In this document: positions 1 to 2,204 of the stretch, in pieces | How the letters are laid out: every line of letters starts with the position of its first letter | Position numbering within the stretch: the first letter of the stretch is position 1 | Source of the DNA: Rhodocyclaceae bacterium | Lineage (GTDB): Bacteria; Pseudomonadota; Gammaproteobacteria; Burkholderiales; Rhodocyclaceae | DNA length: 35,266 bases | Assembly (NCBI GenBank): GCA_020445665.1 | Contig: JAGRGD010000159.1 | Span: 1-35,266 of the forward strand | Direction of reading: 5' to 3' | The notes under the pieces: model-generated | Databases searched by the model: none | The model's input: the letters and a program-made list of their open reading frames with translations, nothing else | Told to the model about the DNA's origin: nothing | Translations under genes and position numbers: made by a program

Positions 1-107
1 CCAGACGAAGCCGGTTCAATCATGGGCCGCGTTTCACGACCCCTGACCTGTGGCTCTCGGATTCAGCGTACCGAGTAGGCCAGGCACCTATGCGACTCGC
101 GTCGCAC
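1..107 (-). other. structured sequence interrupting a tRNA-Gly gene; candidate 5' end of a group II intron (runs off the window)
   Basis: Read on the minus strand, this segment directly follows the tRNA-Gly anticodon loop and begins GUGCG, which fits the group II intron 5' consensus GUGYG. The first bases fold into a perfect 6-bp hairpin with a GCGA (GNRA-type) loop (91-106). A 10-nt-loop stem CUCGG/CCGAG follows (56-75), flanked by a second helix (46-50/81-85). Then comes an 8-bp stem with an AAA loop (24-42). That last stem closes only in minus-strand RNA, where two positions are G-U wobbles; the plus strand would have C-A mismatches there. An early hairpin right after GUGYG is also seen in known group II domain I structures. 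Catalytic domain V, the EBS sites and any reverse transcriptase would lie outside the window, so the intron identity is inference. The alternative is the edge of some other inserted element. Confidence 0.3.
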
Positions 108-146
108 GCTTGGGAAGCTGAGGTAATACCATTATACGACACCCGC
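108..146 (-). tRNA. tRNA-Gly(CCC), 5' half only
   Basis: On the minus strand the sequence starts GCGGGTG (acceptor 5' strand). It continues with the D-arm GTAT-AATGGTA-TTAC and then CAGC-TTCCCAA-GC, giving a 7-nt anticodon loop with anticodon CCC. This agrees with proteobacterial tRNA-Gly of the GCGGGNRTCGTATAATGG type. After the GC at 108-109 the expected anticodon-stem partner, T-arm and acceptor 3' strand are missing. No CACCCGC complement to the acceptor occurs in the remaining 107 bases. The gene is therefore either a displaced 5' fragment or is interrupted by an intron or element whose 3' exon lies outside. Its promoter (186-215) looks intact. Confidence 0.6.
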
Positions 147-185: not shown

Positions 186-215
186 ATTGTAGCGGGGCGG
201 TGTCGGCCTTCGCAA
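186..215 (-). promoter_or_regulatory. sigma-70 promoter for the tRNA-Gly half
   Basis: On the minus strand TTGCGA (210-215) is followed by an 18-bp spacer and TACAAT (186-191), both close to the sigma-70 consensus. Transcription would start about 30 bases before the tRNA 5' end at 146. This fits a stable-RNA gene and suggests that the interrupted tRNA is still transcribed. Confidence 0.5.
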
Positions 216-244: not shown

Positions 245-2059
245 TCAGAAGGGCATCCGCAGCGAGGCAGCCAGGCGGGTGTCGGAGAGGTCGTCGTTGC
301 CGACCACCGAGGTCAGGTCGAGACCCAACTGAAGGTTGTCGCCGAGCTGGCCGACGACACCGAGGTGGGCCGTGGCATAGCTGTCTGCGGCAGGTGCCGC
401 CTCGAACTGGACGAAGCTGGGCGATACGGACGTTGCCATCTTGACCTGCCGCCCGTCTGCTTCCGCGTCGTGGCTCAAGACCACGCTGGCGTACGGCGTC
501 CAGGCGCCGGCACGCAGGAAGGCCTGCCAGCCGACCGACAGCAGGGTCGCGCGTCGACGCTGCTTGCCGAAGGTGAGGGTGCTTGAGGTCGAACCGTCAC
601 TGGCGGTCTCGGCGAAGCTCTGCACCGACACCTCCTGCAGAAGCACGCTGGCCAGCGGGCCGTGGTGCACGGCGCCGGCGCTCATTGCGTAGGCTGCGCG
701 AATGCCCAGGGCCGCGCGGTTGCCGTCCGGTTCGCCCTTGAGGCGGCGGCTCGCCGTGCCGAGGGTGACGCGGCGGTCGGTTTCGTAGTCGGTGCTGGCG
801 AGGGTCATGTGGCCGGTGATCGACATGGCGCCATGGCGATAGCCGACATAGCCCGACAGCGCGACTTCCTCGGCATCGAAGCTGCCGCCGTCGTCCCAGT
901 CGGGCTCGCTGCGGTCAAAAGAGAGGGCCGCGCCGGCGATGAGGTCCTCGCCGATGCGCCGATCGACGCCGATCGCGAGGCCCCAGGGCGTGCCGTCGTC
1001 TTCGCCGAGCTCGGTGCGGCCGCCCTCGACGCTCGCCCAGGTCCCGTTGGCCGCGTCGCCGCGGGTGCTCAGCGCGATCTCCGCGGTCTGCCACAGGCGC
1101 TGCGAGAGTGCGGCCTGGGTGCGCACCGGCAGTTCGGCGAGTTGTGAGATCTGGGCCGGCGCCGCGAGCACGCTGGCGGCGTAGCTGGCGAGCACGGCGT
1201 GGCCGGCGGTGGTCGGGTGGACGCCGTCGGCAAAGACGAAGCTCTGATCGGCACCCGCCGCGACGAAGCTGGCCTCGGTGCACAAGAGCGACGGCGTCGC
1301 GCCGCAGGCCGGCAGGCTGGCGTTGGCAAAGCCATAGCGGGCCGGGTCGGCGACGATCTCGTTGAGCAAGCCGAAGCTATCGAGCATCACCACCGGCACG
1401 CCCGTGGCAGCGAGACCGACGCCGAGTAACTGGTTGTAGCCCGTGGACAGCTGCGTCAGGCCAGCCGCGCCGGCCGCCCCCTGGGACTGGCCAAAGGGCG
1501 TCGCGCCGATGTCCGGCAGATTCCAGACGATGATGCGGCGGGCGCCGGTCGCCGCGAGGCGGGCGACCTCGGTGGCCAGCTGGGCCGTCGTGGTCTGCAG
1601 GTAGGCCTGAGCCGCGGCCGGGTCGGTCGCGGCGGTCGGCGCGATCGTGAAGATGTCGTTGGCGCCTGCCCAGACCGAGTAGAGGGCGTTCGGATCGGCT
1701 TGCCCGCCGGTGCTTGCCAGGTAATTGGCAACCTGCGTCGTCACCGGCGTCGCGTTGTTGGTGGGGGGGGTGTCGGGCACGCCAGGCAACTGGCTGACCC
1801 GGGCACCCCCTTCGGCGTAGTTGGTGCCGCCCTGGTTGCCCGGCGTTACGACAATCCCCAGGCGCTGGCCGAACACCTCGGACCACACCGGGCCGGGGTT
1901 GGTGGTGAAGCGGCCGGTGCCGGGCGGCAGGGCCGGGGCGTAGCTGCCGGCATCGGTCAGGCTATCGCCAAAGAAGATCGCGTTGGAATAGTCCGCGGCA
2001 TGCAAGGGGGCGCAGCAAAGCGCTCCGAGCGCCGCACCCAGAAGGCGCAGTTTCGGCAT
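245..2059 (-). CDS. GDSL-family esterase autotransporter (EstA-like)
   Basis: Predicted outer-membrane esterase/lipase of 604 residues. A signal peptide covers about residues 1-21. The passenger has the GDSL block with nucleophile FFGDS (Ser33), the block III motif GANDIF, and a block V DGVHPT motif with the Asp/His pair, as in SGNH hydrolases. Residues from about 345 to the end alternate polar and hydrophobic segments and finish RMPF with a terminal Phe, as expected of an autotransporter beta-barrel. The start at 2059 was chosen because GAGGAG lies 8 nt upstream and the signal peptide follows at once; the frame stays open upstream but lacks such support. An 8-C run (1763-1770) lies inside the passenger. 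The gene is monocistronic and divergent from thiS. Family assignment is firm; the substrate is unknown. Confidence 0.88.
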
Positions 2060-2102
2060 TGATGTCTCCTCGTTATGCTTGTCTGCCGCCACAGCCCCCC
2101 TG

Positions 2103-2148
2103 CGGTCGTGGCGACGACCGATGCTGGCACGAGCGGCCCGGAGGCCGC
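2103..2148. repeat. two adjacent perfect hairpins in the esterase/thiS intergenic region
   Basis: CGGTCGT-GGCG-ACGACCG (2103-2120) is a 7-bp perfect stem with a 4-nt loop. GCGGCC-CGGA-GGCCGC (2133-2148) is a 6-bp perfect stem with a 4-nt loop. They fill the gap between two divergent start codons, upstream of a weak TAGAAT (-10-like, 2162-2167) ahead of thiS. No T-tract follows either stem, so they are not classical terminators. They could be operators or leader structures. Confidence 0.35.
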
Positions 2149-2204
2149 AAGCGCCGCATGCTAGAATCTGCCACCGTTCGAAGCCCATTCCCCTTCCGGT
2201 TGCA

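What the first reader, a model, noticed from the sequence alone, without database searches (positions are those of the whole stretch)
1..146. tRNA-Gly(CCC) gene broken after the anticodon loop by a sequence starting GUGCG
The minus strand has a good promoter and a 39-nt match to the 5' half of tRNA-Gly, and then no anticodon-stem partner, T-arm or acceptor strand. The sequence beyond begins GUGCG and at once forms a GNRA-capped hairpin, as group II introns do. A group II intron inside a bacterial tRNA gene would be highly unusual. If it is instead an integrated element, the element kept the 5' rather than the 3' half of the tRNA, which is also atypical.
Basis: partly seen in the sequence, partly recalled or inferred. 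Interest (0 to 1): 0.7.

Follow-up and report, generated by a model that had tools for sequence, protein, structure and literature searches.

The report
tRNA-splitting intron carrying a tRNA
The broken tRNA gene at the edge of this contig is cut by a mobile self-splicing (group II) intron which, in relatives where it can be read in full, nearly always carries a complete tRNA of the same kind inside itself, apparently as a spare for the gene it breaks.

Summary
The window is a whole contig that ends 107 nt into a group II intron in tRNA-Gly(CCC), between tRNA positions 40 and 41. The same junction occurs in 23 genomes or records. Relatives show the missing pieces: RF02012, an RT/maturase/HNH protein, RF00029, a branch A at -7 and the exact tRNA 3' half. 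EBS1 GCUUGG pairs with CCAAGC, which includes two anticodon bases.

These 15 comprise 12 sequences, all CCC, none equal to its host tRNA. In 19 of 23 carriers the intron-borne gene is the only contiguous tRNA-Gly(CCC) found by pattern; in four none was found. My reading: a retroelement that brings a replacement for the gene it interrupts. Splicing, expression and mobility are untested, and the window's own intron is seen only for 107 nt.

The parts
108..146 (-). 5' exon: first 39 nt of tRNA-Gly(CCC), through standard position 40 in the 3' strand of the anticodon stem; its last six bases CCAAGC are IBS1
   Evidence: Sequence. In relatives the matching 3' half follows the intron, and the joined halves are called tRNA-Gly(ccc) in 14 of 14 tested.
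1..107 (-). First 107 nt of a group II intron (GUGCG start, start of domain I), cut off by the contig end
   Evidence: 97, 95 and 92% identical over the 146 nt in G001, G002 and G003; relatives continue into RF02012 and RF00029.
186..215 (-). Sigma-70-like promoter of the tRNA gene (TTGCGA, 18 nt, TACAAT)
   Evidence: 1 found, 0.1 expected in shuffles. In relative L035 the only plus-strand promoter-like site between 950 and 4100 is at the same relative place (where shuffles give 2.2 on both strands).

Best explanation
The window ends inside a mobile group II intron (RT closest in PDB to 6me0, recalled as TeI4h, class CL, type IIB) that homes into tRNA-Gly(CCC) between standard tRNA positions 40 and 41. 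EBS1 GCUUGG pairs with CCAAGC, which includes two anticodon bases. The intron lineage carries a complete tRNA-Gly(CCC) gene in domain IV, in the apical loop of a hairpin that pairs with the RT ribosome-binding site. Shown by sequence in relatives: the split, precise ends, ribozyme domains, RT, second tRNA, and its being the only contiguous tRNA-Gly(CCC) found in 19 of 23 carriers. Inferred: transcription starts at the host tRNA promoter and runs through the intron; RNase P and 3' nucleases cut the inner tRNA out, so the cell keeps tRNA-Gly(CCC) whether or not the intron splices; splicing, in cis or from two pieces, can also remake the host tRNA; the RT serves retrohoming. The spare tRNA makes insertion into a usually single-copy gene tolerable. 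That the window's own intron carries the tRNA is inferred from congeners: G002 has it, G001 has its 3' end before the RT; G003 intron 1 does not.
For: Junction in 16 of 395 family genomes, reversed control 0; plus G544, G994 and G920. Joined exons and inner tRNA each tRNA-Gly(ccc) by ARAGORN, 14 of 14; a 15th full intron, read last and after the pattern was known, also has both. EBS1 loop invariant in a changing 7-bp stem and branch A at -7, 14 of 14. RT with RVT_1, GIIM, HNH; 6me0 613 bits; median dN/dS 0.11, 78 pairs. Only contiguous tRNA-Gly(CCC) is intron-borne in 12 of 16, 3 of 3 and 4 of 4. 12 inner versions, all CCC; the L143 one differs from the tRNA-Gly(UCC) of four carriers only at positions 32 and 34. 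Introns without a tRNA have a short SD loop. Decayed G030: no RF02012 or RF00029 hit, outer half reads CGC, inner tRNA intact. Empty-site alignment to congener G092, about 650 bp through upstream flank and tRNA.
Against: No RNA data: neither splicing nor release of the inner tRNA is shown. A tRNA-Gly(UCC) is present in 8 of 9 carriers tested and may read GGG, so CCC may be dispensable. The host halves are undamaged, so splicing alone might suffice, or insertions may be recent. One full-length intron (G003 intron 1, in the window's own genus) lacks the tRNA. Only 3 of 15 introns end in the canonical AC; 10 end GCC and 2 UCC. In 2 of 14 folds the SD is not paired to the flank, and 4 of 15 flank pairs do not beat shuffles. 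Cutting out the inner tRNA would split the intron RNA. None of the second half of the argument can be read in the window's own genome.
Confidence: 0.8

Rival explanations
1. The inner tRNA serves the intron, not the host: as a folding module capping DIVa, a docking or priming RNA for the RT, or an RNase P site that cuts the intron to free the RT message.
For: It sits in the SD-covering hairpin (12 of 14 minimum-energy folds pair 4-5 SD bases with the left flank), a place where related introns are already regulated (recalled for Ll.LtrB).
Against: This does not explain why 12 different tRNA versions all keep anticodon CCC, the identity of the gene that is broken, nor why the inner tRNA stays intact in G030 after the ribozyme and RT are gone.
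Confidence: 0.13
2. The inner tRNA is an idle passenger; splicing alone restores the host tRNA.
For: Both halves are intact and pair in 14 of 14; intron ends, EBS1 and the branch A are kept.
Against: Idle tRNAs should decay, yet the 12 versions are intact, the trait is kept between deeply split RT lineages, and the cargo is exchanged for other tRNA-Gly(CCC) sequences rather than lost. G003 intron 1, however, did lose it.
Confidence: 0.12
3. The interrupted tRNA is dead and the intron no longer splices; the inner tRNA has simply taken over, as replacement tRNAs carried by genomic islands do.
For: Most introns end in CC rather than AC; G030 shows this end state; an island with its own tRNA-Gly occurs at the same gene.
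Against: Purifying selection on the RT, conserved DV, EBS1 and branch A. Host halves equal those of an intron-free congener in 2 of 4 pairs compared by eye (G166-G131, G292-G092); G100-G012 differ by one base and G177-G097 by several.
Confidence: 0.2
4. Assembly artefact, contamination or pseudogene fragment.
For: The window is a contig end in a 341-contig assembly.
Against: The same junction lies inside single large contigs (G100 C1, 5.17 Mb; G166 C1, 4.17 Mb; G994 C1, 3.96 Mb) and in 23 distinct genomes or records.
Confidence: 0.02

Closest known systems
Chloroplast group II introns in tRNA genes (trnK with matK; trnG, trnI, trnA, trnV recalled)
   Same: A group II intron interrupts a tRNA gene; the trnK intron encodes the maturase MatK (PMC4424553, passages).
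   Different: Those are organellar and splicing-dependent and, as far as recalled, carry no tRNA. Here the host is bacterial, the RT has an HNH domain, and a full tRNA of the same identity lies in domain IV.
TeI4h-type mobile group II introns (6me0)
   Same: RT aligned over residues 9-542 at 613 bits; RF02012 and RF00029 ribozyme parts.
   Different: The target is a tRNA gene, and a tRNA fills the DIVa loop; related introns L114 and L123 have a short loop there.
Group I introns in bacterial tRNA genes (such as Azoarcus tRNA-Ile)
   Same: Self-splicing intron in a bacterial tRNA (PMC3984707, passages).
   Different: Group I ribozyme, other chemistry; no tRNA cargo that I know of (recalled).
Genomic islands that integrate into tRNA genes and restore or replace them
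   Same: The element compensates for the tRNA it disrupts (recalled; one search gave listings only).
   Different: Those are DNA elements with integrases that usually restore the 3' end; here it is a retroelement with a whole second tRNA inside a ribozyme.
Intron-encoded tRNAs of fungal mitochondria
   Same: A tRNA gene inside an intron (PMC7902536, one figure-legend passage).
   Different: Intron type not checked by me; nothing read there links tRNA identity to the interrupted gene.

Membership tests
Group II intron | 5' end GUGYG | tested here: met
   Window GUGCG; GTGCG in 15 of 15 full introns with cargo. G003 intron 1 has GCGCG. The search patterns required G(T/C)GYG, so this is partly built in.
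Group II intron | Ribozyme core D1-D4 and domain V by covariance model | tested here: met
   In relatives RF02012 93-111 bits and RF00029 59-71 bits. Not testable in the window, which holds 107 nt. Decayed G030 shows neither.
Group II intron | Domain VI with bulged branch-point A 7-8 nt from the 3' end | tested here: met
   UUACCC with the A at -7 in 14 of 14; that motif was used to place the 3' end, and the exact tRNA join confirms the placement.
Group II intron | EBS1-IBS1 pairing | tested here: met
   GCUUGG in a hairpin loop with a compensating 7-bp stem, complementary to CCAAGC, 14 of 14.
Group II intron | 3' end AY | tested here: not met
   AC in 3 of 15 (G166, G994, G920); GCC in 10 and UCC in 2. 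A usual rather than a defining feature (recalled).
Mobile group II intron | Intron-encoded RT, maturase and endonuclease | tested here: met
   P0001: Pfam RVT_N, RVT_1, GIIM, HNH; TIGR04416 at 377 bits, cut-off 300. Open RT frame in 14 of 15 full introns with cargo; the CALJZP copy is deleted inside.
Group II intron | Precise splicing and lariat formation | not testable with these tools
   Needs RNA.
tRNA gene (inner copy) | Cloverleaf, glycine identity, CCC anticodon, encoded CCA | tested here: met
   ARAGORN tRNA-Gly(ccc) 14 of 14, all ending CCA; RF00005 58-74 bits.
tRNA gene (inner copy) | Transcribed, processed and aminoacylated | not testable with these tools
   Needs northern blot or tRNA-seq.

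The most novel reading that the evidence does not exclude
The intron is a self-insuring retroelement in which tRNA maturation is the switch. The inner tRNA is the loop of the hairpin that hides the RT ribosome-binding site. RNase P and 3' trimming would release a working tRNA-Gly(CCC), cut the intron in domain IV and open the RT message, so host translation, splicing and mobility compete for one transcript. The cargo is also exchanged precisely for other tRNA-Gly genes, once apparently for a tRNA-Gly(UCC) recoded to CCC, perhaps by RT template switching onto mature tRNA.
Probability: 0.3. Interest if true: 0.92.

Novelty: new variant of a known kind. Interest (0 to 1): 0.82.

Why it matters
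Most bacterial group II introns lie outside housekeeping genes (PMC4424553, passages). This lineage aims at the anticodon arm of a usually single-copy tRNA gene and seems to pay for it by bringing a replacement, a solution otherwise associated with DNA islands. It offers a direct test of how a retroelement can use a core RNA gene as a safe harbour, a natural case of a functional RNA carried in domain IV of an active-looking group II intron, and a system where tRNA maturation, splicing and RT expression may meet on one transcript. It also means a tRNA finder reports one gene where there are two: one split, one inside an intron.

Tried and rejected
Integrated element keeping the 5' half: rejected, because an RT-bearing ribozyme lies between two halves that join exactly. 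Pseudogene: rejected for the full copies, because the halves pair; the outer half in G030 is decaying. Viral carriers: two junction-pattern hits (L124, L125) show no tRNA-Gly, DV or RT and are chance; six viral RT relatives (34-56% identity) have no tRNA. Inner promoter: none found on the plus strand of L035 between the halves, so co-transcription is preferred; the scan as a whole gave 1 site against 2.2 in shuffles. DIVa pairing against shuffled left flanks: 11 of 15 copies reach 10 or fewer of 200, four (G166, G100, DILW, G144) do not; rows are related and G994, G920 and L143 were not in that test. Pattern controls: the reversed pattern hit 1 of 300 and 2 of 50, and one forward hit there (G061:C77) is not a tRNA. 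The window piece alone is too short for Rfam. The C142 tRNA end of G000 was first suspected to be the missing inner tRNA; its upstream sequence is not intron. Contig C210 of G000 matched the tRNA part only and reads by eye as another tRNA-Gly. The search for papers with Accumulibacter gave none. No structure prediction was run.

Full report
What is in the window. The minus strand 146..108 is the first 39 nt of a tRNA-Gly(CCC), behind a promoter-like site at 215..186. At 107 it runs into GUGCGACGCGAGUCGC, and the contig ends 107 nt later. The window is the entire contig C49 of a 4.79 Mb, 341-contig assembly. A second, cut-off tRNA-Gly(CCC) stands at the end of contig C142 beside non-intron sequence; whether it belongs to this organism is unknown.

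The same junction elsewhere. A scan of one genome per species (84,980 species) for TAATGG-type tRNA-Gly(CCC) followed by GTGYG gave 9 loci, all betaproteobacterial by record title, among them Candidatus Accumulibacter sp. 66-26, Azonexus, Propionivibrio and Zoogloeaceae (one title says only Betaproteobacteria). Other tRNA types were outside that pattern. A looser pattern hit 16 of 395 genomes drawn from the window's family, with 0 in the reversed control. At order level 2 of 300 matched, the window and G544, against 1 reversed-control hit; at class level 3 of 321, the window, G994 and G920, with no control hit seen. After removing overlaps judged by equal contig lengths I count 23 genomes or records: 16 + 3 + L003, L005, L007 and L008.

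Anatomy in full copies. In relatives the intron continues through RF02012 (93-111 bits) and an RT open frame to RF00029 (59-71 bits) and a domain VI with an A seven bases from the end. Then comes the missing tRNA 3' half, complementary to that host's own 5' half. In 14 introns read end to end with cargo (2.04-2.79 kb) the joined halves are tRNA-Gly(ccc) by ARAGORN in 14 of 14. EBS1 is GCUUGG in every one, in a loop whose 7-bp stem changes by compensation, and is complementary to CCAAGC, the last six bases of the 5' exon. The RT (P0001) has RVT_N, RVT_1, maturase and HNH domains, best solved relative 6me0 at 613 bits. Thirteen RTs give a median dN/dS of 0.11 over 78 pairs (there the G292 row was a 428-residue part, JAKLLI ended at its contig edge, and G994 and G920 were not included). 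Empty sites: the joined flanks of G292 align over about 650 bp to intron-free congener G092, and those of G166 over about 630 bp to G218 and G131; these alignments cover the upstream flank and the whole tRNA, not the downstream side. G036 aligns over tRNA and downstream to G218 of another genus.

The tRNA inside the intron. Between domain III and the RT start each of these 14 introns holds a complete tRNA-Gly(CCC) with encoded CCA. A sixteenth end-to-end intron, G003 intron 1, lacks both the tRNA and the RT. Of 23 loci, domain IV is readable in 21: 19 show an intact inner tRNA, G300 one split by an island, and G003 none. The other two are the window and G001, whose separate contig C52 shows only the tRNA 3' end just before the RT. 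The RT frame is open in 14 of the 15 cargo-bearing full introns; CALJZP has an internal deletion. The 15 inner tRNAs comprise 12 sequences, all CCC; in the 12 introns compared numerically they are 73-86% identical to their own host tRNA, and none of the 15 equals it. Two equal the host tRNA of another carrier: CALJZP inner equals G371 host, and G994 inner equals G920 host. The L003 inner tRNA equals the tRNA-Gly(UCC) of G036, G371, G172 and G168 except at positions 32 and 34, that is, a UCC body with a CCC anticodon (compared by eye). Cargo turns over faster than its surroundings: between CALJZP and G371 the 150-bp flanks are 92 and 100% identical but the tRNAs 78%.

Where it sits. The tRNA is the loop of a hairpin that pairs CCUCC- or CUUCC-like bases with GGAGG, the presumed ribosome-binding site, and continues with bases of the first RT codons. 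In minimum-energy folds of 14 copies the acceptor stem forms with 6-7 of 7 pairs in all, and 12 of 14 pair 4-5 SD bases with the left flank; G166 and G100 do not. Against shuffled left flanks 11 of 15 copies were in the best 5%, four were not. Two related introns without a tRNA, on an Aquincola plasmid (L123) and in G544 contig C43 (L114), have a short loop there; G544 C69 and six viral RT relatives also show no tRNA. The 15 RTs from tRNA-associated introns in the tree (CALJZP and L003 not included) group apart from three outgroups with 98/97 support, G994 and G920 as a deep branch; the root was placed at the midpoint.

Is it a replacement? I scanned 50 genomes, the 16 carriers and 34 of the 379 other family genomes, for contiguous tRNA-Gly(CCC) by pattern. 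12 of 16 carriers have exactly one true copy and it is the intron-borne one (a second G061 match is not a tRNA). The other four are G000, G001 and G003, with contig breaks, and G300, whose inner tRNA is split by an island. Of the 34 others, 31 have exactly one, G018 two, and G005 and G006 none; G005's contig ends inside the tRNA, so its state is unknown. The three carriers outside the family and the four further records also have exactly one, inside the intron. That makes 19 of 23. tRNA-Gly(UCC) was found in 8 of 9 carriers tested, G061's of another body type and G177 none, so loss of CCC need not be lethal. In G030 the intron has decayed (no RF02012 or RF00029 match, no close RT, no outer 3' half in the 6 kb held) and the outer 5' half reads CGC, while the inner tRNA is perfect and the only one. 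In G300 a 21.7-kb island sits in the inner tRNA and brings its own tRNA-Gly. These cases suggest selection for keeping one working tRNA-Gly(CCC).

How it probably works. Shown: structure, target, cargo and its identity. Inferred: transcription from the host tRNA promoter through the intron, since the only plus-strand promoter-like site between 950 and 4100 of L035 is that one and no plus-strand terminator-like site was found; release of the inner tRNA by RNase P and 3' trimming; optional splicing of the outer halves, possibly from two pieces, as trans-splicing group II introns do (PMC4424553, passages; the split in domain IV is recalled). Weak points: no RNA evidence, 3' ends that are mostly CC instead of AC, one tRNA-less intron in the window's own genus, and intact outer halves that could mean splicing suffices.

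Literature. Nine searches of the held library listed no report of a group II intron in a bacterial tRNA-Gly gene or of a tRNA gene as cargo of a bacterial group II intron. Four of these listings were partial (20 of 63, 15 of 44, 12 of 21 and 8 of 10 papers shown). I read passages, not whole texts, of PMC4424553, PMC4390854, PMC8919778, PMC7902536 and PMC3984707. The passage of PMC4390854 mentions group I and II introns in bacteria only in general. Subscription papers are not held, so absence here is not proof.

Noticed in passing
L069 about 1693, and L111 (G300:C23:618192-639896): A 21.7-kb island splits the intron-borne tRNA at GAGGGTTC and carries, just inside its left end, a full tRNA-Gly(CCC) without CCA. 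A similar left end (GAGGGTTCTTGTTGCAG) follows a truncated tRNA in G008 (L072).
   Followed up: partly
L033 (G003:C231), last 97 bases of the contig: Tandem introns: a second intron start, 100% identical to the window's over 97 nt, begins directly after the last base of the first intron, which lacks tRNA and RT.
   Followed up: partly
L032 (G002) and L112 (G001:C52): In G002 the intron-borne tRNA is followed by an integrase-like gene (judged by eye, no family search); in G001 foreign sequence joins the tRNA 3' end just before the RT. Islands seem to use the intron-borne tRNA as attachment site. Similar integrase-like frames follow the host 3' half in L009 and L143.
   Followed up: partly
3' ends of 15 introns and G300: Terminal bases are GCC in 10, UCC in 2, GAC in 3, and GCG in G300, instead of the usual AY.
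   Followed up: no
L038 (G000:C142:3231-3287): A tRNA-Gly(CCC) of the GTAGTTCAATGG type cut by a contig end in the window's own assembly; may be a second copy or a contaminant.
   Followed up: no
L036 (G005:C209) and L039 (G006:C86): G005's contig also ends inside tRNA-Gly(CCC), after 25 nt; G006's tRNA-Gly(CCC) is broken in the T arm by unrelated sequence.
   Followed up: no
window 245-2188, minus strand: The gene upstream of the tRNA codes for a GDSL lipase autotransporter (Pfam PF00657 and PF03797).
   Followed up: no
L143 and L065 inner tRNAs: These inner tRNAs nearly equal the tRNA-Gly(UCC) of related genomes (2 and 3 differences by eye) but with a CCC anticodon, as if an isoacceptor had been recoded.
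   Followed up: partly
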